64,000 nucleotides of DNA from Tribonema minus. Its lineage: Eukaryota; Sar; Xanthophyceae; Tribonematales; Tribonemataceae. Positions within the stretch are counted from its first letter, which is position 1. Every line of letters begins with the position of its first letter. This document shows positions 7,601 to 64,000 of this stretch, one piece after another. The position numbers and the translations under genes are program-made. A model generated the notes under the pieces. That model saw only the letters and a program-made list of their open reading frames with translations, was not told the origin of the DNA and made no database searches. The stretch covers positions 124,001-188,000 of the forward strand of contig JAFCMP010000551.1 in assembly GCA_017506865.1 (NCBI GenBank). Reading direction: 5' to 3'.

Positions 7601-7604
7601 TTTG
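4603..7604. other. Stretch without a supported gene
   Basis: Only short competing frames are present. One frame ending at 7219 (about 65 residues from 7025) has a protein-like composition but overlaps two other open frames and shows no family signature. A short G run lies near 7079-7090. Nothing else can be supported. Confidence 0.35.
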
Positions 7605-7707
7605 ATGCACCAAGCTTGGTCTCTGACCACCACATAACATGTGCAGGCACGCCCTGTGCGACGAACACCGACACAGCTGAAATCTGGCTATAAGATCTAC
7701 AACCCGT
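7605..7707. repeat. Dispersed repeat X, copy 1
   Basis: This shares an ordered series of words (cttggtctct, then gcgacgaa-type, cagctgaaa, agatctacaacc) with 12412-12522, which lies just 3' of an RLE retrotransposon ORF. It is therefore probably a fragment of that element's 3' untranslated region in the same (minus) orientation. Confidence 0.5.
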
Positions 7708-7740
7708 CCGAATCATAAACTTTCGTTACTTTGAGCCTAG

Positions 7741-7812
7741 ATGCACAAATTCTTGGTCTCTGACCAACAAACTGCAAGCGCAGGCAGGCTCTGTACGACG
7801 AACATGACTCTG
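7741..7812. repeat. Dispersed repeat X, copy 2 (partial)
   Basis: It is a second partial copy of the preceding repeat, sharing gatgcac, cttggtctctgacca and gtacgacgaaca. It lies about 130 bases downstream of copy 1, so the two form a short tandem pair or two nested insertions. Confidence 0.45.
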
Positions 7813-16221: not shown

Positions 16222-16399
16222 TCTGTGCGTTGGACAGTGTTGAGCTTCAGTGTGGAGCTTCAGTGTTGAGATAAGGAACGACGGCGAGCGTCAGTTCAGT
16301 TGGGTACTGTTCTGTGCGTTGGACAGTGTTGAGCTTCAGTGTTGAGCTTCAGTGTTGAGATAAGGAACGACGGCGAGCGTCAGCTCAGTTGGGTACTGT
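16222..16399. repeat. Two tandem copies of an 89-bp unit
   Basis: The unit starting tctgtgcgttggacagtgtt at 16222 starts again at 16311. The two copies differ at a few positions (for example gtgtgg against gtgttg). No function is evident. Confidence 0.85.
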
Positions 16400-17160
16400 T
16401 GCTTAAGTGGCATAGGATTGCATACCTGCAGTGGCCTACCAACCGTTCTTTGCACCCGCAGTAGGGCTCTGCGGCTGCTGTAGTGGCAGGGCTACTGTGC
16501 TTGTGTACTGTACGCTACATAACGAGTGCCATGGCAGCAGGCGCAATGCGCTGCTCGCCGCATCCTTCAGGGTTCACCGGGACACTGCACGGCTACATGC
16601 TCCAGGCAGCATTACTGCTTCTCTTGGCTCTTTCAGAATGACACAGCTCGCAAAACCTCCCATCCATCATTAACGAGGAACAAGACATTCACACTCACCA
16701 GTAGAGTGCTCGACCACCGCAAAAGTCAACAAAATCCCAGCGTAGCGTGCAATGTCACCGAGGCTGTACCACTTGACAGCCCATGAGAACATGTCATGAC
16801 CATTGCTGCCAATGTGGCCTCCTCACCCTTTGAGAGCACTTGTCATGGAGTTGGCTGCGTCACAGATGCGGCAGTACGTGTGGCTGTCCATGATAGTTTG
16901 TTGCCATGCAGGGACAAGAAGGCAATGGGTTCGCAATAGGATGGGGAAAATGTTACTGCAAAAGCAGGTGCACTTACCTTTGATGACAAGGTTGATATGA
17001 CCTGTACGTGATGTGTGTCACGGGCAAACAAAACGCCACTGCAGTATGTATGGCCAGTCCGGATGGTCTGTTGCAAGGCGAAGAAGGGCGCCAGTAAGAG
17101 GGCGAGGACCAAGTGCACTTGGAAGAATGCGGCATGGTGAGCTTGTGATCAACATGGTCA

Positions 17161-26400: not shown

Positions 26401-26633
26401 GCGCATTCACAGCAGCAGCGCTCGGCCGCGTGCGGCGCGCACCCGCCGCGGCGGCGGCGCGGATGAGCTCCAGCGAGCTGCACACGACGCGACTGCAGGA
26501 GCTCACACCGGACGCGAGGCCTCCCTCAGGGCCTCAATACCTCAAGTACATGCAATACACACTATTCCGTGAGTGCACATTCAAGGCACACGCCGTCGCA
26601 GCACCAGCGGCGCTCGGCTGCTGCGGCGCGCAC

Positions 26634-30460: not shown

Positions 30461-33400
30461 CTAGGCCGCCTGCGCCTTGGGCTTGCTCGCGCTGCGCGTG
30501 TTGTAGATGTCGTCGAGGGCGGGGCGCGCCGACTGGTCAAAGCCCGCCGCACGCTCCTGCCCGAGGCCCTTGAAGGAGTCGACCTGGATGATGATCTCGC
30601 GCGCGGCCTCGACCTCGTCGATGAGCGCCTGCTCCGCGGGCGTCGCGTCGCGCTTCTCGCGGCGCAGCGTCTGCAAGTTCAAGTTCGACAGCGGCGAACG
30701 AGGTGTTGAGGTTGGCGATCGACATGCTGTGATAGTGAGCGCGCTGTGCAGATAGAGGCCAGGTCTGCAAAGAACCAACAGGCATGAACACGCACCCTCA
30801 TGAATGCCATGTGCGGAGTGCAGCCTCACCTTGAGCACCTCGTCGGCGCGCACCGCCTTGAGCGGCGGCGCGTGTATGAGCGCGATGCGGTCGCTGGGGT
30901 CATTTTGGTGAAATGTTTGTTACTTCAAGTTGTGAATGTTTCTATCAACAAGCTGCTACTTCAAATCGCGAACATCGCCGCCCAGTCTCGCCTTGAGCAC
31001 CTCGTCCGCGCGCACCGCCTTGGGCAGCGTCGCGTGAATCAGCGCGACGCGGTCGCTCAGGTCTTACTGTTGTTTACCAAACGTCTACTTCAAATTGTAA
31101 CAACTGCCAACCTCAAAGATGCAACGCCGAGCGAGCGCAGTTCCTCTCACCCTGGGCACCTCGTCAACGCGCACCGCCTTCGGCAGCGTCGCGTGAATCA
31201 GCGCGACGCAGTCGCCCAATATCACTTTCTTGGAAACAAACTGCTAGTCTAGATGCTTAGTCGTGAAGTTTCCACTTCAAAGATGAAACGCCGAGCGAGC
31301 GCAGTTCCTCTCACCTTGAGCACCTCGCCGGCGCGCACCGCCTTGGGCAGCGTCACGTGGAGGAGCGCGGTGCAGTCGCTGGGGTCCTTTTAAAAAAAAT
31401 AATACTTCAAGTCGTTGCTACTTCACGTCGTGAATATTTCTATAAATAAACTGCTACTTCAATAGTACACATTGCCACGCAGTCTCACCTTGAGCACCTC
31501 GTCCGCGCGCACCGCCTTGGGCAGCGTCGCGTGGATGAGCGCGACGCGGTCGCTCGGGTCCGCCGACACGAACGTGTGGCTCACAAACAGGTCGCGCACG
31601 GCGCTGTCCGTGGAGACGAGGCGCGAGACCTCCTTGGCCAGGTCGTCGCTGGGGCGGCGGTACGTGCGGCCCGTGGGGAAGGCCATGCCGCGCATGGCCC
31701 ACGCCAGCGGGCGCGTGGGGAAGTTGTCAAAGATGCCGTAGAAGGCGTCCTCCGTCTCCGCCAGCAGGCCCTGGGGGGCGGGGGGGGAGGGGGGCGGTCA
31801 ATGAACGATATTAGTTGCAGTTGCATGTCTGATGTGTGCTTTTGAGCCAGCAAAGGCTGTTTGAAAAATGCGATTCTGACATGATCTTCTGATGAGCATG
31901 TTTGCAAGTTTGCATGAGAATTGCCGTAGAAGCCATCTTTTCATTGCAGCCCAAGCCCTTGGCGCCATTAATAGCCGTTGAGGTGATCTTCGAAACAAGC
32001 GGAATATTTGAAACAAGCGGAATACAATAAGTGAGCGTAGCTTCAGTAATTAGATGAAACACCGCCCTTGATGACTCGTGAATCCTGGGTCTTCGTCAAC
32101 CGTTGCTGCTTCAAATTCACAGCACTTCTTGTTTTGCAAAAGGTGCATATGACTGTATCATGTGCACCCCCATAGTGTGACCTCATGCATGCTAGGCTCT
32201 CCTCAACGTGCACGCAACGACGGCATTGGAGTTGTTGAAACAGCTATGCAAATGTATTGTGATGGTTTATTGTGGTGACTTGAACGTCAAAAAATGATTA
32301 TGACTGCTGAAATATGCCGCTCTGAAGCTCTCACATAGCTAGCTAGCTGGGATGATCGCAAGCATGTGCGCCAGTGACCCATGTAGGTCCACACCAATCC
32401 AGTAAGAGGCATGGGTGCACTGCGCATACATGTAGATTATGCGGGTTCCAGCACAAGTGTTTACAAAATAACGGCCCACAAAAACTACTGCAGCACAGAC
32501 ACCTGCTTCTGACACAAAGGTGCACACAAATTTGACAAGTCTTGCTATCTGCATCAGCTGCACCATGTGCAGACATCATGCTCTCGCACAGCATTGGCGC
32601 GGTCGCATATGCCTGTGTGCACGCTTACGTTACACAGTGTCACTACATACTGCTTAGGCAACGCAAATTCTGGCAAAAATAAAGCTGTAAGACATGATTA
32701 GCTTCGGGTATTTTCGTTTCAACAGGAGCTTGGAGACGTCATGTCATACCTTCAGAGCAGCTGCTAAATAAATTGATACTCCCATGATGTGCACAACCTG
32801 GGAACATCACTGCTGAAGCAGCGCTTATCAGCATGGCAGTCACTTTTCAATTTAGATGACACCATACTTTTGGTGGTAAAAACCGACATTCCAGCTACAC
32901 GTTTTTTATCATCAACGACGCGGTGGATTAGAATTGAAACAGTGATACAGCCGTAATTTTTTTTTTTTCACAGGATACAATAGAGCAGCGGCGCTCACCT
33001 GTATGGCGTAGTCACCCACGGCGTCGATGCCCTTGACAAAAAAATTGAATTTACTAACAGCATCTGAAAAATCTCATTAATCAACATCAAATTTATTGGT
33101 GGAAGGCACTTGCGGCTAACCGCTTTTTGTCACCTAGAGCTCTACGATCTTTGAATTCGTTTCCAGCAAAACAAGGAATTCACGTCGTATCAATGACGCT
33201 GCAGCGGCGCTCACCTGCATGGCGTAGTCGCGCACGACGTCGATGCCCTTGACACAAGGAAAAACAATTTATTTTACTTCTTTTCGAAGTCAAAATGAAG
33301 AATGAAGAACGACATCGTAAATCCGCAACGGCGCGCTCACCTGCATGGCGTAGTCGCGCACGGCGTCGATGCCCTTGACGTCCGCGTGCTGGCTCGTGTA

Positions 33401-45772: not shown

Positions 45773-48422
45773 CCAATCAAACACTGAAAAACTTCAAGCG
45801 GAAGTGTTGAGTGGTAGTGCGTGTGCTGTGGCTGTGTGCGCAGCAAAGCATATTGTTTTGCTCGAGACAGCCATAATGCTTGCCACTGCCCGCATGCACC
45901 CACTCGCCTCCGGCAAGCTGTTGCTTGACGAGACTTGGTGCGGCGATTTTGAAAGGGAAGCGTGGTTTGCGCATGGACACGCTCCGCTGAGGCGCGCACT
46001 GGGGCGCACACTATCCCACAGCTCTGCTGCGTCTGCAGCATGCAGGTAAGGTCCCCACCGTTGTGCCTGTCCCGCGTGTTTGTGCACTCCCCACTGGCTT
46101 GCAATACATTGGCGATGTCGTTGAGTGTGATGAGCATCGAGGCTTCGTTGCAAGGTGTGTGTAGAGCCTGGTAGCAGCAGCAAGCTTGACTCTTGAAGTG
46201 ATCTTGGCTTTTCCGCGCTCAAGTCAGAATGGACGCACAGCGCGCTGACTTCCTGAGAGTGTCCTGACCCACTGCAAGTGCCACGAATACATTCATGTGC
46301 AGGCCACCCTTCCGTGGCATCCCTGATGGCGCGGGCACACCCGATGGCGCCAGGTTGCGGCTGGTGCTGGAGCTCACCTGCTGCGAGCTGGCAGAATCCC
46401 GCAACACCGGCCAAACGCAGGACTGGATGAGGCAGGCAGGAGTGGCGGCAGCCAGGGTGAGCATGTTACTCGAGGCTGTGGGGGGAACCTTTAAATGCGC
46501 CTCGTGCTGTTGGTGCATACATATGTAACAGCAATGGCGGGAAAGCTTCGGGCCCCACGATCGCTGCCCATATTTTGGTGCTCCGCTACCCTAGCCACAA
46601 GGCCGTTCACTTCAAGCTGCACGTGTTGTTGACATGGACGCTAGGGGCTTCTCTGGGCTTAAGCTGCGCTTGTACATACCGCGATGCAGTTGCCGATACA
46701 TAGTTTCATCATTAAGCCTGGTAGATAAGGCGTGTGCAAGCTCATGAGTTCTCTGCAGTAGTGCCACAGAGTACACGAACGGGTCGTCATGTGTGGCAAC
46801 TCACTGCTACCATGCGTTCCCCATGAGGTTGGTATTTCCCCCCGCTGCACCTGTGCACTGCCTGGCATTGCATGTTCATCAGCATGGCATGTCCAGCACT
46901 ATCCCTGTGCGTCAGGCAGGCTAGTTCAGTAAATGGTACTTTTTATCAGTTCTCGCTCAAGGGCGCGAAAAAGCCCAGATGAATGGCATCCAACTTGAAG
47001 CTTGCTGTACGGAATCTACGTGTCGTGTGACAGTCTGAAAGGTACTTTGCTTACAGCTCTTTTGTGCCCCCTCCCCCCCCCCCCCCCCCCCCCCCGCAAC
47101 ACATGCGCCACGCAGAGCACGCTCCGCGCGACGGCAGCAACGGCCTTTGCAGAAGCGCTCAAGTTGCAGTTTGGCGCGTGCCACACCCTGCAGTCACTGA
47201 GCACTGTGGAACTTCGTGTATCGTGGTCGCCACCAGCATGGCTGCCGAGCATTTGGCAGCGGGTTCTCGGAGTAATTTTTGTACAGGTACCAACTTGCAT
47301 GCGACGGCGCACGCAAAACCCAACCCTAGTCCTAATGAAAAACAACCCTAGTCCTAAAAATATTAATGCTCCGAGTCATTGTAGAATGATCTTAAGGGTG
47401 CAGTGCTACTTGCAGCATGATGTTGTAGACATGCACCAAGCTCGCATGCTTTGAAGCATGAAGCAGAAGAGCACAACCAACACACCGTCACACCAACTTC
47501 AAGTTGAAGAAGCGTGGCAACACTCCATGGCTACCCATATGTGCGCGTCGTGGCAACAGCCATACTCAAAGGCCGTCGCCGCCGCCGCTGCCGCGCCGCA
47601 TATTGCACCCCTGCCCACACGAAGTGCCTCTACCAACATGCACTGAATACCACGCCCCACAACTGCAAACTCTCTTTTTGATGGCTGCCGCCGCCGCGCC
47701 ACCGCAGGGGCTCGCACGCCAGCTCAAAGCCCATGCCCTACCCTACTTGGGCGTGTTCCTCGTGGACACCGGAGCGCTGCTGCTGCCGCACGCCTTGCGG
47801 CGCTCTCACGCCCGCCGCCGCCGCCGCAGCGCCGCTTTGCGCGCACACAGCGCGACGCCGCCGCCGCCGCCGCCGCTGCCGCCACCGTCGCGGCTGCTGC
47901 GCGGCGTCGCGGCGCTGGGGCTGCGCACGCTGCTGCGCTTTGCGTGCGTCAGCGCGTTCGAGGCCGCACGGCTCCTGAGCGGCGGCAGGGCGGACTCTGA
48001 TCCAGACTTGTAAGTATGATTTTTGTTGGCTCGGTGCTCAGCGGGCTGTGCTACGCTGATCAGCAGCAGCAGCGCGGACTCTGACCCGGGATTGTGAGTA
48101 TTGGGCGATCTCAGTCTCTCTCGTGGGCTGGGCGATGCGCTGTGAGCTGCCGGTTTTTGCTGACTCAGTGCTCAGCGGCTGTGCTCCGTTGATCAGCGGT
48201 GTCAGCGTAGACTCTGACCCAGACTTCTGAGTATGAGGGCAAGTCCCATGGGGGCTTGACGCGCTCTGAGCGCTGCCGTATGTGTCAACTCAGTGCTTAA
48301 CGGCTGTGCCCCACTGGTAATCAGAGGCGCCTGTCATGTCGTTGATGTGTTTTGTATGCAGATGGCAGCTGAGAACTGCTGCTGCCGCTGCGCCCCCGCT
48401 TCCCACGAGCTGCCCTTGGTAG
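45773..48422 (+). CDS. PEX16-like locus 2 (tentative)
   Basis: Exons 45773-46045, 46303-46456, 47116-47286, 47708-48009 and 48362-48422 (stop TAG) join with consistent phases (2, 0, 0, 2). The first exon's beginning is uncertain and upstream exons are likely. Features in order: HIVLLETAIMLATARM helix; RLRLVLELTCCELAES; RATAATAFAEALKLQFG; then HALPYLGVFLVDTGALLLP with an Arg-rich loop, a Pro run and RLLRGVAALGLRTLLRFACV. The PYLGVFLVDTGALLL segment resembles the PW-x3-L-x-VDT-x4-LL region of plant PEX16, which recruits peroxisomal membrane proteins. The ORF seems to end in TAA at 48011, but this is a GTAAGT donor. Two further donor-region copies follow at about 48076 and 48205. Confidence 0.45.
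46938..47041. repeat. Dispersed ~103-bp repeat Y, copy 2
   Basis: It lies in the intron before exon 47116 of the PEX16-like locus 2. It matches 27762-27865 closely. Flanking bases differ, so the repeat has sharp ends. Confidence 0.85.
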
Positions 48423-50162: not shown

Positions 50163-53100
50163 TCACCGCAGGATCTCGCGCGCCTTGTCGGAGAAGTTGC
50201 CGATGGCGCGGTCCGAGATCTGGCCGAGCTCTGACGCGAAGCTCCCGAGCTCCGCGGCGAAGCGCTCCTTGAAGCCGCCGAGCTTGATCTCGCGCGCCTC
50301 TGGTGGCAGCGCGGCGGCGGCGTCGTCGGCGCCGAAGAGCTCGCGCGCCCACGCCGCGCGCGCGCCGCCGCCGGGCCCCGCCGGCGCGTAGTCCGCGCGC
50401 TGCCGCACGTAGGCGAGGAGGTCGCCGCGCGGCATGGCGGCGAGGCGCCCCGTCTCCATGAGCGCGCCGAGGTTCGCGGGCGGGACGAGGAAGAGGTTGG
50501 CGACCTCGCGCAGGTCCTCGAGCGCGGCGTCGACGCGCGGCGCGCCGACCGCGCCGAGCGCGCGGCGCAGCGCGTTCACGTCGTTGGCGAGGACGAACGC
50601 GCCCGCGACGGTCACGCGCGCGCGCTTGAGGTGGTCGCAGAAGAGCGTCAGCGCGCACAGCCCGACGGCCTGCGGGCGGAGGGTTGGGGGGAGGGGGGGG
50701 GGGGGGGACGCGAGTTGTGTGGGGGGGGTTATTGGGGAAAGGCTGGGGGGGGGGGGGGGGCGAGGGGAGAGGGGGTTGGGATGCGAGGTTGGGGGGGGGG
50801 GGGGGGGGCTGCAATGCCGCTGGTGCACATGTGGCTGGCTGCCGAGCGCGGCGCGCAGAGCCGACGGCCTGCACGGGGGAGGGGGGGGAGGAGGGGGGGA
50901 GGGGGGGAAGCAGGCATGCCAGTGAAAGTGCTTGGGGCACATCAGCGCCAAGCTGCCATGGCCTAGCTTGAGGTTCTGTAAGCACCTGCTACGCCCACCT
51001 TCTGCGGCGGTTGTGCATGGCACGCTTCGGCACTCAAATAAGGGCCGCCGTTGCACATGGGGCTGGCCCCCCAACGCGGTGCCGGCGCGACCTAACCCTA
51101 ACCCTAACCCTAATCCTAAGGCGCATGTAGCATCTAAAAGCAGGCACAGAGGTAAGGTTCAACAAGACAAGTGTCACTGCGCAGAGGCTTGCTGAAAGGT
51201 TTGATGGTAGCGAGCGTGGACAAGAATTCCATGCTGCGCTCGCAGTTCACGGCAACGAGTGTTCTGTGTTGTGATAAACACGCTGAACGTTTTCCACTGA
51301 TCGAGTTGTGCAACTAACATACATCATTCTCGTCACTGAAGTATGACCCGTCATGCCGTCACCGGCCTTGCAGCAGCGCTGGCCCTAGCAACTAGGATTC
51401 GATGAACTTCACATCAGCTCCAACGACTTCAAGTTCAATTTGCCTGCAGGCAGTGCGTCGCGAGCGCATTCTGGTCGTGCGGCAGCGTAAACCCTAATCA
51501 TAGGGCTAATCGTCAACCCTATGAGTCATAGGTTTGACGATTCGCCCATGGTCAACCTTCAACTCTTGAAATTCATGTCTTCAACTTTAACTTCTTCAAC
51601 TTGAACGCACCTGCCATGTCCATGCCCAGCAGCTTCGCGTTGTGGGAGCGTACTGTGATACTGCGGCAACGCTAGCCCGGGTTACAAACCTTAACTTCAT
51701 GTCAAACCTACTAATGTTCAACCTCAACTTCACGTCGAACGCACCTGCCACAGCGCTGTCATGTCCGTGCCCGGCAGGCAGTGCGTTGCGAGCGCGTACT
51801 GGTCCTGCAGCAGCGCTAGCCCTAATTCTCGGATTAACAATGGTCAACTTCAAGTTCACATCTCAAACTTCAAGTTCAAGTTGGTCGCACCTGCCATAGC
51901 GCTGTCATGTCCGTGCCCGGAAGGCAGTGCGTCGCGAGCGCGTACTGGTCCTGCAGCAGCGCGCACAGCGCCTTGACGGTTCGTGAGGCATCCATGGCGG
52001 CGGCGGAGTCGTCGCGCAGCGCGTAGTCGTCCTGTTTTGTGCGCGGGGTAAGCGAAGGGGGAGGGGCGAAGGGGGGGGGGGGGTGAGCAACAGGCCGCGC
52101 AGCTTCAATGACGAGTAATTTTGAAGTAGTGAATCAATAGCTGGACTGCAGCAGCGCGCACAGCGCCTTGACGGTGCGCGACGCGTTCATGGCGGCGGCG
52201 GCGGCGTCGCGCAGCGTGTAGTCGTCCTGTGCGTGTGCGAGTTTGCAGGGGGGGGGCAGATGCCATATCAGAACGGTTGCACGCAGAAAACGCAGCGCAC
52301 CTTCGTTGTCGAAAGTGGTTTCGAGATGAGTTCGACAGCGACTGCTTCAGTTGAGCTCAGGAGCAGCTACAAGGAGGCGTGCTTGACCAAAATGTCACCG
52401 TTGTTTTGTGCCTTTCACTGCAGTGCAGTGCCTTTGCCTTGCAGGTGGCCAGGATGCGCTGGGTGCCGTCGCTCTATACATACACATCCAGGTATCCACA
52501 TACTTCAAAATGCATACTTCCACGACCTACAGGCAGGGCAGCACTCCCCTGTGCCTTGCGGCTGGCCAGGATGCTCTAGGTGCTGTGTACACACACAGAT
52601 GCCCACCCTGTTTTCCCAAATGCAAGATGCATGCACTTGGAGGTATGTACACATATACCTATTGTATACCCACATACGACAGGGGGCAGCGCTCACCTTT
52701 GCCTTGCGGTTAGTCAGGATGCGCTTCATGACGTGATGCGCCCTCTTTGCACGTGCACAGAGATTTGCGTGTGTGTATGTGTGTGTACCTGTTGAGACAC
52801 AAAGGCACCCAGACCTATAATACACTTCGCGAAATCCATACACTTTGAAGATCACTCCAAGCAAGAATTGCACATCCAAACTTACACCAGCAGGGCAGCG
52901 CTCACCTTTGCCTTGCGGTTGGCCAGGATGCGCTCCGTGCCAGCAGCGACCATTTCCAGCGCCTTCTGCAGCACTCTGCCGGCCGCGCCCTCCACCTGGC
53001 AGCAGCGGCGCGCATGAGCGGACAGTTGAGCACTGCGGTCCGCACAGTGATCACTACTTAAAAAGGACAGTTCAAAATATTTGAGAAGTGTCTGAGCTGT

Positions 53101-56100
53101 GCCGGCGGCGCCCCCCGCCCCCCATCGGTGCGCATGTGCGGTCAGTTGAGCACTGCAGTCCACACATCGACCGTAGAGTGCGCAAGGTAAGAAGACACCA
53201 GCTGAGCTGTACCATATGTCACTGTGACAGCGGCGCCCCCCACCCGCCAACGGTGCGCATGAGGCGGTCAGTAGAGCACTGGAGTCCACAGTGTGATCAT
53301 TACTTCAAGCAACAAAATGTAACTTAATTGGGCGCGCCACATTTGCATCGTAGTACAGCGTCACCGCCCGCGGATGAAGGGCACCAAACTGCTGTGTGGC
53401 TGCAGCGCGTCTCCAGCCGACGTTGCGCCATCGGCGTGCCCTCCTTGCATAACTAGGGTTGCACTTAGGTGCGTCACACTTGTCTTGAAGTGATGCACCT
53501 GCTGCACATGGCTGCGGCGCGCCTCCAGCGCGATGGTGCGCACCGCCGGCGTGCCCTCCACGCGCAACTACAGTCGGGCTACAGTCAGGTGTGTCACACT
53601 TGAAGTAATCACCTCTTGAAGTGACGCACCCGCTGCACGTGGCTGCGGCGCATCTCCAGCGCGATGATGCGCACCGTGGCTTGATTTTCATGCACATCTA
53701 GGGCTACAATGTGGTGTGTCACACTTGAAGTAACAGCTGTTGAGGTGACGCACCTGCTGCACGTGGCTGCGGCGCGTCTCCAGCGCGATGGTGCGCACCG
53801 TGGCTTGATTTTCATGCACATCTTGGGCTACAATGTGGTGTGTCACACTTGAAGTAACAGCTGTTGAGGTGACGCACCTGCTGCACGTGGCTGCGGCGCG
53901 TCTCCAGCGCGATGGTGCGCACCGTTGGCGTCCCCTCCATGCCCGTGGACACGACGTCGCGATGGTGTTCTTGCAGCGCGCGCGACGCGCCCGTGCATGC
54001 CGCCACGACCTCGTACAGCTGGCGCGGCGGCAGCGGCGGCGGCGCGTCGCCGAGGATGTCCTGCGAAGCGCCGCGGCACAAGGGTAGGTAGGGTATGGAA
54101 TTGACCGATCATACCCCATACCCACTACATGGCATGACATTTAATCGGGTAGTGTGGCGGTGGCGGCGCGTCGCCGAGGATGTCCTGCGCGGCGCCGGCG
54201 CGAGGGTAGGTAGGGTATGACTTTGACTGATCATACACATACCCCACTACACATGACATGCTATAGCGTGTGCATAGTGAGTGTGCAGCGGGAACTGAGG
54301 AGCTGCGAGGTGGGGGGCGGCGTGACAGTAAGTGGGGTTGAAAACTCACTGATCATACCCCATACACCACTCTACAGTGGTCTGACATGCGGTGAGGTGT
54401 GTACGTGATCAGTATGCGACAGGGGATGAGGACTGCAGCAGCTGCGAGGGGGAGGGGTGGCGCGAGTGGTGGTGATGCTCATCCGCAGCACGGCTCAACT
54501 GCAGGGCCAACGCCGTGCAAAAACTGCACACAAACATGTTTGCCCGCTGCACATAAGCGTATGAGTTCAGCAGGCCTTGGCCAATGCGCCGCTGCCGCGG
54601 CGGCAGCAGCGACGGCGCATGCAGCGGCGACGCGGAGTCCTAACCCTGATCCTAACCCTAACCTAATGCCCCGCAGGACGCGAATGTGGGCGCCATTGCA
54701 CAGAGAGCATTTGGACGTGAGGGTGCGTACTGAATGCTTTTGCTTAAACTGAGGTCAGGGTTGGGGTAGAGGTTAACTTAAGAGCAAGACGACCTCGCTA
54801 ATTCGATTTTGTGTGCAGGTGTGCTGCGCGGGTGCGCACAAACGCCGTGAGCACATTTGCGATGCTGCATGCACGCCGGCGCCATCAAATTTCAGCTGAT
54901 TGCTACTGCGGGGCCATGCTGTCAACCAGAAGCGTGGGCGTGCCAAGCCCTAACCCTAACCCTAGCCGTAACCCTAGCCCTAGCGCCGCAGCACGTGAGT
55001 GGTTGCGCTTGGCGTTGATTTCGAAGACAAAAGTCTGTGTCGCGGCCAATGCGGTTGTGGGATAGGGGACAGACCCTCCAGCTGGGGGTTGGCATTATTT
55101 GTTGCTCTAGCCCCTGGTCGAGCATTCCTTGTTGGCCGAATTATTGAGGATTAGGGTTTGGCAGTGCTCGCCTTGAGCGTCGGACATCATTAATGGCAGC
55201 GCTGGCCCTGGGCTCATGTCAGAGAGATAGGTCAGCTTCAGGGTTATGTATGTAGGCTGCTTGCCTTGAGCATGCGGGTTCAAACTCAGGGCTAGGGTTT
55301 GTCACCTGGGCCCGTCCCCTCCCCCTTTCTAGTCCGTTTAGGGGGGGGTGTAGAGGGGGAGTCCCTGGGGACAAGGCCAGGGTTAGAGTTGGGGTTGTAA
55401 TGCTAGATCTGGGGTTTGGCAGTGCTCGCTCTGGTTCAAGCTTACGGCCAGGATTGGGGTTTGGGTTGCTACGACAGGGTTGGGGTAAGGGCTGCAACGT
55501 TACACCTAGGGTTTGGCTCCCCTTTTGCGGACCACGCTGACACGGCTTTGCCTGTGCTCGCTGTGGCTTATGGCCAGGGTTGGGGCTTGAGTGGCTACAA
55601 CAGGCTTGTGTTAGGGCTGCAAAAGCACAACTAGGGTCTGGCACTGCGTTGAGCGTCGCGGACGACGCCGTGACGGAGTTGACAGCACTCGCTCTGGCTT
55701 TCGGCCAGGGTAAGGGCTTGGGTTGCTACAGAGATTAGGGTTAGGGCTAGGGCTGCATCACAACTAGGGTTTGGCTCACCTTGAGCGTCGCGGACGACGC
55801 CGTCACGGGATTGGGCAGCAGCTGGCTCGCCGCGCGCAGCGCAGGGATCACCAGGTGGCCTACCATGAACTTGCACACGAGCGTCCAGATGGCGCCGACG
55901 CGCTGCTCCCGCGCCTCCTCATCATGCACGATGCTCCGGCACCTGGCGTTGGAATTAGGGCTAGGGTTAACACATGAGGGTCAGGGTAGGGTTTAGCTTA
56001 GGGTTGGGTTCCAGATGGCGTGGGCGGGTAGGGTTAGGTAGGGTTAGCGTCCAGATGGCGCCCACGCGTTGCTGGCGTGCCTCCTCGTCGTGCACGATGC

Positions 56101-59100
56101 TCCGGCACCAACCATCGGAATACGTATGTGCAAGGCTAGCGTTAGCACATGAGGAATAGGGTAAGGGTTAGGGTTGGGGCCCAGATGGCGTGGGCGGGTG
56201 GGGTTAGGGTCCAAATGGCACCCACGCGTTGCTCGCGCGCCTCCTCGTCGTGCACAATGCTCCGCCACCTGGCGTTGAAATTAGGGCTAGGGTTAGTTAG
56301 TACATGAGGTTACCTGGCATCGGGGTTAGGGCTAGGGTTAGGACATGAGGGTCAGGGGTAGGGCGAGGGTTTAGGTCCTGGCATTGGAATTAGGGGCTAT
56401 GAGTAGCACATTAGGGCTAGGGTCAGGGTTGGGGTCCATATGGCAGCCACTTGCGCTGCTCGCGCGCCTCCTCGTCGTGCATGATGCTCCGGCACCTGGC
56501 ATTGGGGCCAGGGTTAGGTCAGCACATGAGGTCAGGGTAGAGTTAGGGTTAGGGTTAGGGTCCAGATTGCGTGGGCGGGTAGGGTGAGGTAGGGTTAGGG
56601 TCCAGATGGCGCCCACGCGCTGCCCGCGCGCCTCCTCGTCGTGCACGATGCTCCGGCACCTGACATAGGGGTGTAGGGCTACAGTTAGCACATGAGGGTT
56701 AGAATAGGGTTAGGGTTGGGGTTAGGGTCCAGATGGCGCCCACGCGCTGCCCGCGCGCCTCCTCGTCGTGCACGATGCTCCGGCACCTGACATAGGGGTG
56801 TAGGGCTACAGTTAGCACATGAGGGTTAGAATAGGGTTAGGGTTGGGGTTAGGGTCCAGATGGCGCCCACGCGCTGCCCGCGCGCCTCCTCGTCGTGCAC
56901 GATGCTCCGGCACCTGACATAGGGGTGTAGGGCTACAGTTAGCACAAGAGGGTTAGAATAGGGTTAGGGTTGGGGTTAGGGTCCAGATGGCGCCCACGCG
57001 CTGCCCGCGCGCCTCCTCGTCGTGCACGATGCTCCGGCACCTGACATAGGGGTGTAGGGCTACAGTTAGCACATGAGGGTTAGAATAAGGTTAGGGTTGG
57101 GGTTAGGGTCCAGACAGCGCCCACATGCTGCTCACGCGCCTCCTCGTCGTGCACAATGCTCCGGCACCTGGCGATAGGGTTAGGGTTAGGTTTAGCACAT
57201 CAGGTTGGGGTAGGTTGGGGTAGGGTCGGGGTTAGGGTGAGGGTTAGGGTCCAGATGGCGCCGCACGCGCTGCTCACACGCCCCTTCGACGTGCACGATG
57301 CTCGGCACCTGGTGTTGAGGTGAGGACTAGGGTTAGCACATGAGGGTTAGGGTAGGGTTCGGGTAGGGTCGAGATGGCGCCCACGTACGCTTGCTGGCGC
57401 GCCTCCTCATCGTGCACGGTGCTCCGGCTCCTGGCATTACACAACGGTTGTGCACTTGCGGTGAACCGTGAACTCATCGTGTACTGTTGAAGTGTACTCG
57501 CCTATGAACGGCGTCTGTCGACAGCTCGCACACCTGGCGCATCGCGCCTGCCAGCAACTGATCGAGACTCATGAGTAATGACTCACCTCCATGCATGCTG
57601 CAATGAATGAGTCAAGCGCTGCTTCGCCGCTGCGCTTGGAGCCTGCGCTGCAGCGCGCGGCTTCGGTCGCGGTTGCTCTGAGGGCACCGCACTCATTGCG
57701 ATGCCGTCCGCGCCGCTGCCTGCACACCCTATCTGCACTCGTGCTGTACCGTGAACTCTAGCAGTGTACCGTTGAAGTGCACTCGCCTGTGCACGGCGTC
57801 TGTCGACAGCTCGAACACCTGACGCAGCGCGCCCGCGCGCAGCGGCCCCGCCAGCAGCTGATCGAAACTCGTGACTCGTTCCAGGTACACGGCGGGGAAC
57901 GAGTCGAGCGCTGCCATGGCGGCCTTCTTGACGGCGCGAAGTTCAAGCGCGCCCGCCCAGCAGCCCTCGAGCAGGCGCAGCAGGCTCGCCAGGAGGTGCG
58001 CCGTCTCCTTCTCGGCGTACTTCTCGCGGTGCTCATAGAACATATGCTTGGCCTGCGCAGCGCAGTGCACGTGAACAGTCAGATACAGTGTGCAGTTTTC
58101 TTGTATGTTGAAGTGTACAACTTCAAGTATGTAAACAGTTCATGAGTGAGCGCAAATTGCGCGTAATGATGGTGTGATGTTAGACGCCGCCTCCGTCTTG
58201 GCGTACTTCTCGCGGTGCTCGTAGAACATGTGCTTGGCCTGCGGAGCATGCAGAGGTTGATTTCATGCGTGAAATCGCTCATAGAAATGTAGTGTACATA
58301 CGTCAGAGCGTATGCGGTATAGAGTTCGTATATGCGCGCCTGCCCAGCAGCCCTACAGTCGTCTCCTCCTCCACGTACTTTTCGCGGTGCTCGTAGAACA
58401 TGTGCTTGGCCTGCGGCGCAGCGCACATGAAGGGTCAGCTACAAACAAACGCAGTACAAGATATCTTGTATGTTGAAGTGTACATGATTCTAGTGTGTGC
58501 ACAGCTCATGTAGGAGCTTACGTTGCACGCAATGATGGCGTGATATTGGACGCCGTCTCCTTCTCGGCGTACTTCTTGCGTTGCTCGTAGAACATGTGCT
58601 TGGCCTGCGGAGCTCACATCGAAGGTCATTGTTATACACACACACTGTTGGCTCTCATGTCAGCATTTCCCAGTGTGTGTACGGTTCATGTATGCGCGCC
58701 TGCCCTGTAGGCGCAGCAGGCTCGTACAACATGTGCTTGGCACGCAGAGGTCAGTCTGGTGCGTGAAATCACACATTAGTGTATATACGTCAAAGCTTAT
58801 GAAGATAAAGTTCAAGTATGCGCGTCCGCCCAGCAGCACTACAGCCGTTTCTTCTCCGCGTACTTCTTGCGCTGCTCGTAGAACATGTGTTTGGCCTGCA
58901 GAGCACGCAGAGGCTGATTTCATGCGTGATATCATACATGAAAATGTAATGTAGATACATTAATTCATGTCATTAAAGCTTGTGAAGTATAGAGTTCATG
59001 TATGCGCGCCCGCCCTCTAGCAGGTTCGTGTGCTGTAGGTGTTGACACACTCTGAAGTATGCATACAGATCATGTGTGAGCGCGAGTCCTACACGGTGAT

Positions 59101-59806
59101 GGCGTGATATTAGACTTCTCAGCGCACTGCTCGCGGCGCTCGTAGAACGTGTGCTTGGCCTGCGGCGTGCGCAAACGTCATATAAACCATTATTTACTCT
59201 CATGTATGTACTTTCTGCTTGACACTTTCATGTATGTACCTGCAGACGATACATACCAATACTGAACACCCATGCCTCGAACGCTAAAAGCTCGCACACA
59301 GAAGTCTTTTCGGCTAATGTGGATATGGTGGCACTGTTGGACTCGTGGCCAATGACTGCAGCAGCGGCGACCACGGTGATTGGTGGCAGGCACTTGCGGC
59401 TAACTATCCCTTGTCACCTAGAGCTCTGCAATCTTTTGCTTCATTTTCACATACCCATATAACATACCTGCTCATCCAAATACTTCATCAGGCTGGTCGC
59501 CTGCTGCTGCCGCGACGCGGCGGAGCTCGGGTCGCGCTCCGCCCACGACTTGCCCCCCCCCCCGTCCCCCTCCCCCTCCTCCCCCTCGCCCCCCTCCCCC
59601 CCCTCTCCCCCCGCCAGCAGCCCCGCCTGCACCTTGAGCAGGTCGAATAGCGCGCACGTCTGCTGCTCCACCATGGCGAGGCAGTCCAGATAGTCGGCAA
59701 CTGGCAGCGGTTCCAGCGGCGGCGGCGGGCTCAGAACCTTCTCCACGCGCGCCTGGGAGGGGGGGGGGGGGGGAGAAGATTATAAATCTTTAGCTGGTTG
59801 GCCTTG

Positions 59807-59845
<39 letters not shown>

Positions 59846-62800
59846 AAGATTATCTAGTTTAAGGTTGGCCTTTTGTAGGGTTTTCCCCATGGTGGCACAG
59901 AAGGTCGTCCTCCCGCAGTCCGACCTTCTCCTCCTGAATCAAGTTGCAGCTTTTTGTTCTGTATGCTGTAGAAAGCCTAAGTACAGATGGATTCTGTTCT
60001 ACTAAAGGTGTCACTCGTTGAAGATGATGCAGCATGTGTCTATTTGCGGAGCGGAGCGACAGGGCGCGCGAGGCATGGCGCAGAGTCAAGCCTCGCAGGC
60101 GGAGCAGGGAGCCGTTGGCGAAAGTTGCAATGTCGGCAGCAAGCGGGACTTCAGGATGGGGGGTAGAGGGGGCTCAGGACCTCTTTTGCGTGGCGTGTGT
60201 GTGTATTTTGCAGGTTCGGCGCGGAACGTCAGCTTTTGACGCTTCTGCCAAGGGCATGCAAGCCGCGCATGCTGCGAAGTTCACGTCGGCGGATGGGCAC
60301 GTCACACAGGCAGCCACTTGCGATCTCACACTGCCTGTCGGCGCACAAATTGGGAGGGCATGGTGTGATGGGCAGTGCAGGCGTTGTGGCACTAACCCTC
60401 ACCTTAACGCTAACCCTAACCTAACCCTGGATCACGCCATTGCCGAGCGCTGCACAGCGCCCGCACGTCGCAGGCGCGACCGCTGCTGAGGCGTGCTGTG
60501 CCTGCGCGCGTGGAGCATACGCACGCGACGACTGCGCGGCACATACCAGCGAAACTGCTGGGATGCGGCGGCTGCGGCAGTTTCAAACCCGTAGCCGACA
60601 GCGCACGCACGCCCGCAGACAGGATTGCTGGGCGTGCTCCGCAGCAGCAGGCGCGCAGCGTTTGCGGCCTGTGACCGACAGCACGTGCACACGTGCGGTA
60701 GACGCAGTCGCTGCGCATGCGCTGCAGTAGCAGCAGACATGCGTGCAGCGTTCGCACCAGTTTCAATCGTGTAACTGCCACACGTGCTCTCTCTCACCTG
60801 TATGCCGTAGACGGGGTTGCTGAGTGTGCGCTACACCAGCAGGCGTGCAGCATGAGTAACAGTTTCCAATTGCGTAATTGCCACGCGCGCACCTGTATGC
60901 CGTATATTGTATATTGGGTTGCTCAGCATGCGCAGCAGCAGCAGGCCGCTGCAGCGTTTGCGACAGTTTCAATCACGTAACTGCCACACGTGCTCACTCT
61001 CACCTGTATGCCGTAGACAGCGTCGCTGAGCATGTGCTGCAGTAACAGGCGCATGCAGCGTTTGCGGCACTTTCAGTGCACATGCCGTAGCCGCAGTGGT
61101 TGAGTGGCGCTGCGGCAGCAGGCCGTTTGCAGCAGTTTCAGCCACGTGCAGCAATTGCATTTTCAGTTCCAGTAACCAACTGCCCCCGCGCGCACCTGTA
61201 TGCCGTAGACGGGGTCGCTGAGTATGCGCTGCAGCAGCAGGCGCATCACCTTGAGTAACAGTTGCCAATTGCGTAACTGCCACGCGCGCGCACCTGAATG
61301 CCGTAGACGGGGTCGCTGAGTATGCGCTGCAGCAGCAGGCGCGTCACCTTGGGCGCGAGCAGCGGCGGAAACACAGCGACGATGAGCGGGAACTCGGTGT
61401 GCGCGACGTCGATGACCTTGCCAAACAGGCCGCTCAGCGAGTCCTGCGGGGAGGGGGGGGGGGGGGGCAAGGTGAGGGGTGGCATCACCAACACAATTTG
61501 TGTGTGTTCTCATATGTGCTGTGGCTTCGCGAATGCACAGTGCTTCAACTTGTAGTCGGAGAGTCGCCACAGAAGAGGACTCTCGGCAAGTCCTACGCGA
61601 TCGAGGAGAGGTAAATGCATTCAATTGTGAAAGTACGCAGTCGAACACTTCAACTCCAGAAGTTTGCGAAGTCACGCGCACTTGAAAAAAATTAGTGCTT
61701 GTGCGCACCTGGGTCCGCGAGGACTCTCGGCAAGTCCTACGCGATTGAGGAGAGGTAAATGCATTCAATTGTGAAAGTACGCAGTCGAACACTTCAACTC
61801 CAGAAGTTTGCGAAGTCACGCGCACTTGAAAAAAATTAGTGCTTGTGCGCACCTGGTCCGCGCCGCCGCCCGCCGCGCCGAGCCCGCCCTCCCCGACGGC
61901 GGCGCCGCGCGAGGTGCCGACTGCAAACTCTTTTGGTGACACAAACGAATTTCAAATTTTGCAACTTCACTTAGAACTTCAACTTCAAAAGCACATCAAC
62001 GCGAGCATCATCCGCACCTGGTCCGCGCCTCCCCCCCGCCGCGCCGAGCCCGCCCTCCGCGACGGCGGCGCCGCCGTGCGCGAGGCGCCAACCAAAACAC
62101 TCCACGAGCAACACGCACAGATTCGCCTTCGGAAGTACGCAACCTCAAACTTCAACTTCAGCTGTGCGCACCTGGTCCGCGCCGCCGGCCGCCGCGCCGA
62201 GCCCGCCCTCCGCGACGGCGGCGCCGCCGTGCGCGAGGCGCCGATCATAACATTTTGACAAGTGACAGCAGCAACCCGGAGTTCAGAAGGTACACGCAAT
62301 ACAACCTCAAGCTTCAACTTCACAAGTACACATTGTCGCGCGCGGCGCACAGGTACCTGGTCCGCGCCGCCGCCAGCCGCGCCGAGCCCGCCCTCCGCGA
62401 CGGCGGCGCCGCCGCGCGCGAGGTGACGACCGAAACGGTCCGAGCGCCACACACAATTGCACCTTTGGAAGTACGCAGCCTCAAACTTCAGATTCAGCAG
62501 TGCGCACCTGGTCCGCGCCGCCGCCCGCCGCGCCAAGCCCGCCCTCCGCCACCGCAGCGCCGCCGTGCGCGAGGCGGCGGCTCACCACGCCGTACACGTA
62601 GCGCCCCTGCAGGTGGTCGCCCTCGTTGAGCGCGTACAGAATGTCGGCGCACTCGCGCATGAACTCGGCCTCGGGCGGCGCGCGCCCCGCGGCGCGCTCA
62701 AAGAGGTCGAGCAGCTCCGCCTCGAGAAAGTCGGCGTATGCGCGCATGTTGCCGGCGGCGCGCCCGAGCCCCGGCGCGTCGAGCTCGAAGGAGATGGCGC

Positions 62801-62936
62801 GCAGGCGCGAGAGCACGCGCGCCGCCTCCATGCGCCGGTCCTCGTCCGCGAAGACCGCGGGGAGGCGCGCACGCGCCGCCGCCGCGAGCGCCGCGCCGCC
62901 GCCGTCTGCGAACCCCTCGGGGAGCTCGTCGAAGAC
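50163..62936 (-). CDS. SEC10: SEC10 / EXOC5, exocyst complex subunit (N-terminus not found)
   Basis: The exocyst tethers secretory vesicles to the plasma membrane. Nine exons: 62936-62508, 61443-61294, 59752-59468, 58052-57787, 55942-55780, 54060-53878, 52995-52906, 52031-51891, 50669-50163 (stop TGA). All junctions keep frame; all are phase 0 except the phase-2 junction after 57787, whose donor is GC. The 737 residues cover most of the family length. The first exon has RMEAARVLSRLRAISFE, NMRAYADFLEAELLDLFERA and ECADILYALNEGD, close to plant SEC10. Exon 2 has FPLIVAVFPPLLAPKV and LLLQRILSD. The last exon has the terminal signature VDAALEDLREVANLFLVPPANL and LLAYVRQRADY. An inserted Gly/Glu-rich stretch lies in exon 59752-59468. 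The N-terminal 100-170 residues should lie above 62936 or beyond the window. Confidence 0.92.
50860..50885 (-). repeat. Copy of SEC10 last exon's acceptor side
   Basis: CCCCCGTGCAG followed by GCCGTCGG-CTCTGCGCGCCG repeats the acceptor and first codons (AVGLCA) of exon 50669-50163, about 200 bases upstream of the true acceptor. Long G runs (C runs on the coding strand) lie between them at 50690-50812. Confidence 0.65.
51091..51120. repeat. Telomere-like CCCTAA tract in intron
   Basis: CCTAACCCTAACCCTAACCC followed by TAATCCTAAGG lies in the last SEC10 intron. It is too short and internal to be a chromosome end. Confidence 0.85.
51425..51800 (-). repeat. Intronic copies of SEC10 exon 52031-51891 donor side
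   Basis: Segments at about 51730-51800, 51600-51640 and 51445-51480 repeat the end of the exon (coding QDQYALATHCLPGTDMTALWQ-type sequence) with decreasing fidelity, together with an intron flank rich in cttcaagttcaag. Confidence 0.75.
52145..52231 (-). repeat. Copy of SEC10 exon 52031 acceptor side
   Basis: CACAG followed by GACGACTACACGCTGCGCGAC through GCGCTGCTGCAG repeats the first 80 or so bases of exon 52031-51891 with frame kept. It could act as an alternative acceptor about 200 bases upstream. Confidence 0.8.
52430..52720 (-). repeat. Three intronic copies of SEC10 exon 52995-52906 donor side
   Basis: Copies of CGCATCCTGGCCAACCGCAA with GGCAAAG and a donor-like flank occur at about 52696-52730, 52548-52580 and 52432-52465. 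The nearest copy keeps GTGAGCGCTG; the others have a changed donor. Flanks with TACACACACA-like words also recur. Confidence 0.8.
53385..53810 (-). repeat. Four intronic copies of SEC10 exon 54060-53878 donor side
   Basis: The last 50-60 bases of the exon (coding VRTIALETRRSHVQQ) plus donor and about 70 bases of intron recur at about 53750-53810, 53625-53685, 53500-53560 and 53385-53445. The nearest copy and the exon share acttgaagtaacagctgttg in the flank, so this pair is young. Confidence 0.85.
54140..54186 (-). repeat. Copy of SEC10 exon 54060 acceptor side
   Basis: GCGCAG followed by GACATCCTCGGCGACGCGCC repeats the first 20-25 bases of exon 54060-53878 about 125 bases upstream of the true acceptor, with a similar flank (ggtaggtagggtatg). 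Confidence 0.75.
54940..54985. repeat. Telomere-like CCCTAA tract in intron
   Basis: CCCTAACCCTAACCCTAGCC with variant units follows an open-looking segment. Similar shorter tracts lie at 54640-54665, 55736-55765 and 60390-60428, all within SEC10 introns. Confidence 0.8.
55995..57440 (-). repeat. Exon-derived satellite with telomere-like spacer (127-bp core)
   Basis: About ten copies of the acceptor and first 50-60 bases of SEC10 exon 55942-55780 (GTGCCGGAGCATCGTGCA through GCGCCATCTGGAC) alternate with spacers made of TTAGGG-type words. Four consecutive units between about 56590 and 57110 repeat with a period of exactly 127 (CACC at 56657, 56784, 56911, 57038). Units nearer the true exon are more variable in spacing. 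Confidence 0.92.
57487..57572 (-). repeat. Intronic copy of SEC10 exon 58052-57787 donor side
   Basis: The segment repeats the exon's end (coding FDQLLAG through ELSTDAV-type residues), and ends in AG/GCGAGT, the same non-canonical GC donor as the exon itself. Confidence 0.75.
58190..59165 (-). repeat. Six intronic copies of SEC10 exon 58052 acceptor side
   Basis: CAG followed by GCCAAGCACATGTTCTACGA and CGCGAGAAGTACGCC recurs at about 58190-58243, 58375-58416, 58555-58610, 58712-58745, 58845-58903 and 59118-59165. Flanks share gtgtacatacgtcaa and ttcatgtatgcgcgcc words. Fidelity is high in the exon-like part, lower in the flank. Confidence 0.88.
59759..59843. repeat. Long G runs, one of 34 G
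   Basis: An uninterrupted G run spans 59810-59843 and a shorter one 59759-59773, separated by a segment (acaagattat, ttggcctt) that is also present after the second run. On the coding strand these are C tracts just upstream of a SEC10 exon acceptor, and they may serve as polypyrimidine tracts. Confidence 0.9.
60780..61245 (-). repeat. Intronic copies of SEC10 exon 61443-61294 donor side
   Basis: Copies of the exon's end (GACCCCGTCTACGGCAT-type, then CAG/GTG) occur at about 61190-61250, 61000-61045, 60893-60935 and 60797-60840; more diverged pieces (tgcgctgcagcagcaggcg) extend to about 60600. Only the closest copy keeps the sequence almost exactly. Confidence 0.8.
61575..61862. repeat. Two near-identical tandem 144-bp units in SEC10 intron
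   Basis: The unit starting gaggactctcggcaagtcc at 61575 restarts at 61719 and differs at very few positions. It includes the donor-like GTGCGCAC next to the copied exon end, so the duplication arose within the exon-edge array and is recent. Confidence 0.9.
61846..62440 (-). repeat. Four intronic copies of SEC10 exon 62936-62508 donor side
   Basis: The end of the exon (coding AVAEGGLGAAGGGADQ) with CAG/GTGCGC recurs at about 62353-62440, 62170-62250, 62022-62095 and 61853-61920, a period of about 160-180. Each is followed on the intron side by cttcaacttcaa-type words. The exon parts stay mostly open in frame. Confidence 0.88.
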
Positions 62937-63074
62937 CTGGAGGTGTGGCGTCGCGTGTCGATGGGGGGGGGGCGGTGGGGGGGCAAGGGGAGCGTCACTG
63001 AGCTGGCACCGGGGGCAGGGGAGAGGGGGGGGGGGGGGCTGCACCAGGCTGGCACGTGTGTGTGAGCACGACGG

Positions 63075-63122
63075 TAGGTGCGTATTCTTGTCCACAAATC
63101 CCTCCGGGAACTCGTCTAACAC
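63075..63122 (-). repeat. Copy of first recovered SEC10 exon's acceptor side
   Basis: The minus strand reads VLDEFPEGFVDKN, parallel to VFDELPEGFADGG at the start of exon 62936-62508. It is either a copied exon edge or part of the true upstream exon; the first is more likely because the following bases do not continue as coding. Confidence 0.65.
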
Positions 63123-64000
63123 CAGCGCTGCAGCACGTGCGTTGCGTGTGCGTGGGCGGGGGCGGCTGTCATCGGATGAGGGTGGGTGAACGAGGGAGTG
63201 TTGAGCTGACCCTGTTACCCTAACGCTGGCACGTTCGTCTGAGCGCGGCGGCGGGTGCGTTGGCGGGCTCAGCGGGGATGAGCGCGTGAAAACGGCGACG
63301 GCGGCAGCGGCGGCGGTGCTGTCTAGGGAGCTCTCTGGGGGTGTGAAGGGCGTCAGAGAAAGTGTTCAAATGGGATTGAATGGCACCGTGGCTTGAGTCC
63401 ATGCAGCGCTGGAGCTGCGTGCTGCTGCCACAATGTCTCTTGTCACGGAGGCAGCGAGCAGATGCGCGCACAGCGGCGGCAGCGGCGGCGGCAGCAGCAG
63501 CGGCAGCATTGACGGCCGTGCCGTGTGTGCTGTCAGCAGACACCTCAGGCAGCTAGCTCGTCACAGGCCTGCACTGCCACGGTGTGCGCGCATTGGATGC
63601 ATGCAGCGCCGCTGAGCAGCGCTGCGCACCCATGTGGGACCGCTGCCACAGCGATTCACTGTCTCCCTTGGACACCCAGTCACCTACGTTCGACCTCACC
63701 TGCAGGCATGTGCGCTTTAAGCGTAAGCGTCTGTGCAACAATTGTGGCGTTCCTTCTGCACTGCAACGCAGCGTGCTTGAGGTTATATGAAGAATGAGGC
63801 GGTGCGGTCTAGCCCGACAGGACCCACCGTCCACCTACCGAAGCTGTCATCCGCGTTTCACTGCGCACACAGTATGTGTATGACCACGTTTCCCCACATG
63901 GTCAAAAAACCTGAGTGAGAAGTAAAGAGGACGTATGCAGAAAGGTTGCGAGTCGCGCGCGCACTGCAGCTCCACTGCATCAATCACCACCTTTTCTGAC
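63123..64000. other. Unresolved stretch upstream of SEC10 exon
   Basis: The SEC10 N-terminal exons should lie here or beyond the window on the minus strand, but no segment with the expected helical sequence and matching phase was found. GGC/GCA-rich simple sequence occurs at 63295-63320 and 63465-63510. Confidence 0.35.

What the first reader, a model, noticed from the sequence alone, without database searches (positions are those of the whole stretch)
50163..63122. Exon-edge reiteration: SEC10 introns are filled with tandem copies of their own exon borders
In at least eight SEC10 introns the first or last 30-90 bases of a neighbouring exon, with its splice site and part of the intron flank, is repeated one to ten times. 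Donor-side copies follow 62508, 61294, 57787, 53878, 52906 and 51891; acceptor-side copies precede 62936, 58052, 55942, 54060, 52031 and 50669. Fidelity often falls with distance from the real exon. Random segmental duplication would not centre on splice borders so consistently. A process acting at splice junctions, for example repeated copying of intermediates or replication slippage anchored at AG/GT, is suggested.
Basis: partly seen in the sequence, partly recalled or inferred. Interest (0 to 1): 0.88.

Follow-up and report, generated by a model that had tools for sequence, protein, structure and literature searches.

The report
Introns littered with exon-edge copies
In this alga's genome, about a quarter of the sampled splice borders have extra, non-coding copies of the neighbouring exon's edge (with its splice site) lying inside the intron, most likely left by small local DNA duplications, which raises the question of how the cell picks the real splice site.

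Summary
SEC10 lies on the minus strand; my nine-exon model aligns to ochrophyte homologues. In SEC10, 12 of 16 borders have an intronic, same-strand copy of the exon edge (13 of 16 by BLAST). In chaperonin and myosin genes chosen without regard to the finding, 24 of 104 do. Controls: 0 of 120 in a random other-gene intron, 0 of 120 antisense, 3 of at most 120 for exon interior. Copies lie about 150 bp apart. Changes seen in one copy only are spread evenly over codon positions (55/57/57), so copies are not translated; all 11 sites where the copies agree against the real exon are third positions. Some copies appear to predate a myosin paralogue split. Best reading: recurrent local tandem duplication across exon borders, neutral because one intact border remains, with the exon-derived part decaying more slowly than intron flank. 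Part of the border-centring is geometry and longer visibility. Not explained: exon overlap is short (median 58 nt; over 85 nt in 4 of 36 borders, 47% expected), and border arrays seem several-fold too many. A splice-anchored copying process is possible, not shown.

The parts
62508..62936 (-). SEC10 exon 1 of the modelled nine (5' exons not modelled)
   Evidence: phase-consistent join, AG/GTGCGC; aligned to homologues
61294..61443 (-). SEC10 exon 2
59468..59752 (-). SEC10 exon 3
57787..58052 (-). SEC10 exon 4 (GC donor, GCGAGT)
55780..55942 (-). SEC10 exon 5
53878..54060 (-). SEC10 exon 6
52906..52995 (-). SEC10 exon 7
51891..52031 (-). SEC10 exon 8
50163..50669 (-). SEC10 exon 9, ends in stop codon
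61853..62401 (-). intron 1: four copies of the 62508 donor edge (62357-62401, 62172-62216, 62019-62063, 61853-61897)
60689..61240 (-). intron 2: six copies of the 61294 donor edge
58194..59159 (-). intron 3: five copies of the 58052 acceptor edge above threshold (a further partial one seen in the alignment)
57502..57546 (-). intron 4: one copy of the 57787 donor edge
56064..57430 (-). intron 4: ten copies of the 55942 acceptor edge
55647..55691 (-). intron 5: copy of the 55780 donor edge
54140..54633 (-). intron 5: copies of the 54060 acceptor edge (54140-54184; weak 54589-54633, score 41)
53386..53798 (-). intron 6: four copies of the 53878 donor edge, unit about 124 bp
53097..53290 (-). intron 6: diverged repeats reaching 22-24 nt into the 52995 acceptor edge
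   Evidence: BLAST only; below the score-38 edge test
52432..52741 (-). intron 7: three copies of the 52906 donor edge
52182..52226 (-). intron 7: copy of the 52031 acceptor edge
51745..51789 (-). intron 8: copy of the 51891 donor edge
50824..50868 (-). intron 8: copy of the 50669 acceptor edge (score 38, at threshold)
63097..63123 (-). weak copy of the 62936 acceptor edge (27 nt, score 29)
30825..31359 (-). second gene (acyl-CoA-dehydrogenase-like, named from its translation by recall): four copies of the donor edge of the exon ending at 31489 (scores 97, 87, 80, 77)
32993..33253 (-). same gene: two copies of the donor edge of the exon ending at 33341 (scores 85, 75)
26437..26481 (-). copy of the donor edge of a predicted exon ending near 26634 (score 65)
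48062..48232 (+). two copies of the donor edge of a predicted plus-strand exon ending near 48009, both just under the threshold (score 36)

Best explanation
Introns of this ochrophyte grow in part by repeated local, head-to-tail duplication of segments of roughly 100-200 bp that straddle an exon-intron border. The intact outermost copy keeps serving as the exon; the extra exon-edge-plus-splice-site copies are presumed to be removed with the intron, carry no coding constraint, and decay. The GC-rich exon-derived part takes substitutions and above all indels more slowly than intron sequence, and is compared with a constrained real exon, so old arrays stay visible through their exon edges after the linkers have become hard to recognise. 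Occasional gene conversion with the real exon probably refreshes some copies. Shown: presence, locality, orientation, spacing, lack of coding constraint. Strongly suggested: that some copies predate a paralogue split. Inferred: tandem duplication as the step, removal by splicing, conversion.
For: Copies lie in the adjacent intron: against other introns grouped with the same gene 1 of 788, and that one (score 39) pairs two different myosin genes; antisense 0 of 120; 85 copies at median spacing 148, IQR 122-179. Some arrays are full-length tandem repeats, e.g. 124 bp x 3.5 at 89%, and the nine copy-copy pairs with exon edge >=97% also have flanks at 0.95. Changes seen in one copy only: 55/57/57 by codon position; real-exon-only changes 11 of 11 at position 3. 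Introns with copies are longer, median 885 (n=27) v 465 bp (n=33). Matching copies in two myosin paralogues: exon part 12 differences in 155 (2 gap positions), linkers 31 in 187 (39 gap positions), fourfold sites 39 of 294, two copy-free introns 22.5% and 45%. In one intron, at three sites each paralogue's copy matches its own exon.
Against: Even where the exon edge is >=93% identical (28 real-copy pairs) the intron flank is only 0.78-0.83 identical, against a null of 0.75; in the gapless profile similarity drops sharply at the splice site. Exon overlap is far from uniform over the unit length (KS p = 3e-5). Arrays detected without exon-derived sequence and not near copies are no commoner in introns (5 in 44.9 kb) than in other non-coding window DNA (3 in 33.6 kb), a background that predicts fewer border arrays than seen (my estimate). 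Conversion is not general: 11 real-exon changes were not passed on.
Confidence: 0.6

Rival explanations
1. A process tied to splice junctions or transcription (copying from RNA or R-loop intermediates, or template switching at the exon border) places exon-edge copies in the intron.
For: Exon overlap short, >85 nt in 4 of 36 borders v 47% expected under random breakpoints; sharp loss of similarity at the splice site; outside SEC10, three of the seven local direct-repeat families in window 1-50 kb hold copies of an exon donor edge above threshold and a fourth just under it; stop-codon ends of coding regions 0 of 7.
Against: Copies include the splice site itself and, in some arrays, long stretches of homologous intron; antisense 0 of 120 and no dispersal to other introns of the gene was seen; the inner end of the exon part varies between borders.
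Confidence: 0.2
2. Selection keeps the copies as auxiliary or decoy splice sites that influence splicing of long introns.
For: AG kept in 33 of 35 acceptor copies, and in acceptor copies similarity is highest at the AG and falls with distance into the exon; GT/GC kept exactly in 39 of 47 donor copies; +3..+6 donor score 3.19 v real 3.38 v background 1.88; pyrimidine content 0.67 v 0.69 v 0.49; exon part evolves about half as fast as linkers.
Against: GT and AG are not clearly better kept than the neighbouring exon bases (donor GT 0.74 v 0.79, acceptor AG 0.96 v 0.93); changes fall evenly on codon positions; in the myosin pair the copies' divergence is not clearly below that of fourfold sites (12 of 155 v 39 of 294), so strong constraint is not required; using acceptor copies would add intron sequence to the mRNA (inference).
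Confidence: 0.13
3. Chance similarity, low complexity or misassembly.
For: Copies were first noticed by eye in one gene; one cross-gene match at score 39 in 788 tests shows the test has a small background.
Against: 0 of 120 controls against 36 of 120; found in SEC10, chaperonin and myosin genes; mean exon-edge identity of copies to the real edge is 0.90, which duplicated assembly would not give; matching copies in two paralogues.
Confidence: 0.02

Closest known systems
[quoted passage not shown] potato RdRp case, PMC4974935, passages incl. part of the abstract read)
   Same: Tandem duplication inside a gene that carries splice signals; the potato case duplicates an intron-exon structure and also mentions a separate 83 bp tandem duplication inside an intron.
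   Different: Here existing introns are lengthened, no new intron or exon is apparent, and copies of the upstream exon end lie on the donor side rather than ending at the acceptor; it recurs at about a quarter of sampled borders.
[quoted passage not shown] seen only as a citation, content recalled)
   Same: Small duplications within genes reaching across exon-intron structure.
   Different: Here only an exon edge is copied, often several times.
Introner elements (PMC9860276, search listing with start of abstract only)
   Same: Repeated sequence associated with introns in many genes.
   Different: No shared element between introns was seen: each array derives from its own exon.
Stwintrons (PMC8469720, search listing with start of abstract only) and recursive splice sites (recalled)
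   Same: Extra splice sites inside an intron.
   Different: Copies carry mostly 30-85 nt of exon; no nested-intron structure was shown.

Membership tests
Rogers-type tandem-duplication intron gain | Intron is bounded by two copies of one exonic AGGT segment, so the upstream exon end recurs at the acceptor | tested here: not met
   No donor-edge copy ends at the acceptor and no acceptor-edge copy starts at the donor among the 85 copies listed
Introner elements | One sequence family shared by introns of many genes | tested here: not met
   Edges v one random other-gene intron each: 0 of 72 and 0 of 48. Only exon-edge segments were tested, not linkers
Introner elements | Target-site duplications or terminal inverted repeats | not tested
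   Inverted repeats were rare (at most one in 6 of 36 introns); TSDs not examined
Tandem exon duplication (alternative exons) | Copy is a whole exon with both splice sites and an open frame | tested here: not met
   Maximal exon overlap median 58 nt, next to one border; single-copy changes even over codon positions
Recursive splice sites | AG|GT junction used as successive 3' and 5' sites | not testable with these tools
   No RNA data; AG|GT is present in many donor copies, as expected because most of these exons end in AG
Local tandem repeat / minisatellite array | Head-to-tail copies of one unit, flanks included | tested here: inconclusive
   Met in some arrays; flank similarity near the null in many

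The most novel reading that the evidence does not exclude
A duplication process biased to splice borders (splicing- or transcription-coupled) has continually seeded introns of this alga with exon edges of about 30-85 nt plus their splice sites, so introns are partly built from their own exons.
Probability: 0.2. Interest if true: 0.82.

Novelty: new variant of a known kind. Interest (0 to 1): 0.58.

Why it matters
It is a natural experiment in splice-site choice: many introns hold several close copies of the true splice site with its exon context, some only about 100-150 nt from the real one. If the copies are ignored, the cue that picks the real site must lie outside the border itself. It also points to a route of intron lengthening from the gene's own exons; my seven paper searches listed no report of this pattern.

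Tried and rejected
Rogers-type intron gain, introners, and whole-exon duplication were considered and do not fit (see membership test). Coding use of the copies was rejected on codon positions and a 1-nt insertion in a paralogue copy. My first reading, that copy conservation demands purifying selection, was weakened by the fourfold-site and indel comparison. Continuous conversion from the exon is not general: 11 sites show real-exon changes not passed to the copies, and the second myosin intron shows no own-exon pattern. The gapless profile understates similarity where indels occur; redid it with gaps. Rubisco gave only fragments. Paper searches led nowhere useful.

Rows dropped: 8 of 10 chaperonin gene regions were fetched. 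Junctions were chosen by me as the top candidate; five hits that overlapped a longer hit in HMM positions were set aside as extra copies, pairs 25 or more HMM positions apart and one low-scoring pair were left out, and gene L044 gave no complete intron. Of 26 myosin pairs with held sequence, 24 passed the score and margin cut-off. Introns longer than the held flanks could not enter, so long introns are under-sampled. The exon-interior control window (90-141 nt from the border) can leave a short exon, as in the 90-nt SEC10 exon. In one search the grouping by gene lumped the myosins on contigs with three-digit numbers, so the 788 tests mix same-gene and cross-gene pairs. In one search, 2 of 49 donor copies did not align at the exon end. 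In one search, 47 of 49 donor and 35 of 36 acceptor copies were used.
Full report
WHAT IS THERE. The window is G000:C548:124001-188000 of a 158 Mb genome in 554 contigs. Two stretches match Pfam Sec10_HB on the minus strand. I joined nine exons (window 62936-62508, 61443-61294, 59752-59468, 58052-57787, 55942-55780, 54060-53878, 52995-52906, 52031-51891, 50669-50163); the eight introns begin with GT (seven) or GC (one) and end with AG, and the frame is open to the stop. A protein search gave 7 hits; I aligned three of them: Chrysoparadoxa australica (50% identity over 96% of the query), an unnamed EukProt protein (47%) and an MMETSP transcript (59%, over 59%). The product aligns from its first residue to near its end with the first two, so the borders are supported by homology, not by RNA. 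Introns are 874-1844 bp.

THE REPEATS. Self-comparison of each intron with its exons finds direct repeats that reach into an exon at 13 of 16 borders: donors of introns 1, 2, 4, 5, 6, 7, 8 and acceptors of introns 3 to 8. With a fixed test (45 exon nt plus the splice site, local score at least 38) it is 12 of 16.

BEYOND SEC10. Borders with a copy: 16 of 56 and 8 of 48. The same edges against one random intron of another gene: 0 of 72 (SEC10 and chaperonin) and 0 of 48 (myosin). Segments 90-141 nt from the border against the own intron: 2 of 72 and 1 of at most 48. Antisense: 0 of 120. Other introns grouped with the same gene: 1 of 788, at score 39, and that pair joins two different myosins (the grouping lumped several), so it is a background match. 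Elsewhere in the window (1-50 kb) I count seven local direct-repeat families. In three of them the edge test finds copies of an exon donor: exon ends 31489 (four copies), 33341 (two) and 26634 (one); a fourth, beside an exon end near 48009, has two copies at score 36, just under the threshold; three families I could not assign. Exon ends there come from codon scores and reading by eye, not homology.

ANATOMY OF COPIES. 85 copies, 49 donor-side at 22 of 60 donors and 36 acceptor-side at 14 of 60 acceptors; spacing median 148, IQR 122-179, no multiple-of-three bias. Maximal exon overlap per border has median 58 nt, 10-90% range 32-86; it exceeds 85 nt in 4 of 36 where random breakpoints would give 47% (at most 150 nt of exon was scanned, and decay shortens the measured overlap). 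In two arrays (SEC10 intron 3, L048 4715-5997) the alignments suggest that the original copy reached about 110 nt into the exon and later lost its distal part. Splice sites are largely kept: AG in 33 of 35 acceptor copies, GT or GC exactly in 39 of 47 donor copies.

DO COPIES CODE? No. Changes seen in one copy only (borders with two or more copies) fall 55, 57 and 57 on codon positions 1, 2, 3; the 11 sites where all copies agree and the real exon differs are all third positions. So copies drift freely while the real exon drifts at third positions.

AGE. Two myosin genes on contig C79 (one on each strand) share copies at matching intron places, so those copies appear to predate the gene duplication. 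Exon part of the copies: 5 of 81 and 7 of 74 sites differ, with 0 and 2 gap positions; linkers 20 of 117 and 11 of 70, with 16 and 23 gap positions; fourfold sites 39 of 294; two introns without copies 22.5% and 45%. The exon-derived part thus differs no more than fourfold sites and about half as much as the linkers, with far fewer indels. In one intron three neighbouring differences between the real exons are mirrored in each gene's own copy, which points to conversion between exon and copy; in the other intron no such pattern is seen.

WHY AT BORDERS? A duplication wholly inside an exon damages the protein; one across a border leaves a working border on the outside; one inside the intron is free. 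With units near 150 bp and introns of a few hundred bp, many duplications will straddle a border by geometry. Exon-derived sequence also stays recognisable longer. Against this being all: with exon-derived parts of the copies masked, 20 arrays remain in 44.9 kb of intron, 15 within 150 nt of an exon-edge copy (9 of them in SEC10) and 5 elsewhere; 33.6 kb of other non-coding window DNA has 3. At that background (about 0.1 per kb) roughly 11 kb of border-straddling opportunity outside SEC10 would give about one array, perhaps 3-9 after allowing for longer visibility, against 24 borders seen. This is my rough estimate, not a fitted model. The flank result (exon edge >=93% identical in 28 real-copy pairs, flank 0.78-0.83 v null 0.75; but 0.95 in the nine copy-copy pairs at >=97%) and the short exon overlap are also not fully explained. 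Stop-codon ends of coding regions show copies in 0 of 7 cases, too few to decide.

WHAT IS KNOWN. Tandem duplication within genes as a source of introns is an established model; the potato RdRp paper (PMC4974935, passages read) describes one duplicated intron-exon structure and an 83 bp duplication in another intron. The review PMC3488318 (passages read) cites related work. My seven searches listed no paper on recurrent exon-edge copies in introns; most subscription papers are not in that library.

VERDICT. The plainest account is recurrent border-straddling tandem duplication with neutral decay; a bias of the process to splice borders is possible and testable.

Noticed in passing
window 54946-57438 (SEC10 introns 4-5): Linkers are rich in degenerate CCCTAA/TTAGGG telomere-like repeats.
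   Followed up: no
window 57786: GC donor (GCGAGT) in SEC10 intron 4; the other seven modelled donors are GT, mostly GTGCGN or GTGAGC.
   Followed up: partly
window 16222-16400: A 97% identical 89 bp tandem duplication not tied to any exon I could recognise.
   Followed up: no
window 7598-7804 and 9128-9418: Two diverged local direct repeats (79% and 75%) not tied to a recognised exon.
   Followed up: no
G000 contig C79, 611-616 kb (minus) and 689-695 kb (plus): Two close myosin paralogues in opposite orientation with shared exon structure, useful for dating intron changes.
   Followed up: partly
window 38672-39958: Long coding-like minus-strand segments whose translation resembles a heat-shock-factor DNA-binding domain; named from recall, not searched.
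   Followed up: no
G000 C334:714136-714324 and C112:516888-517037: Only two fragments of Rubisco large subunit were found, each with a stop; possibly plastid DNA in the nucleus.
   Followed up: no
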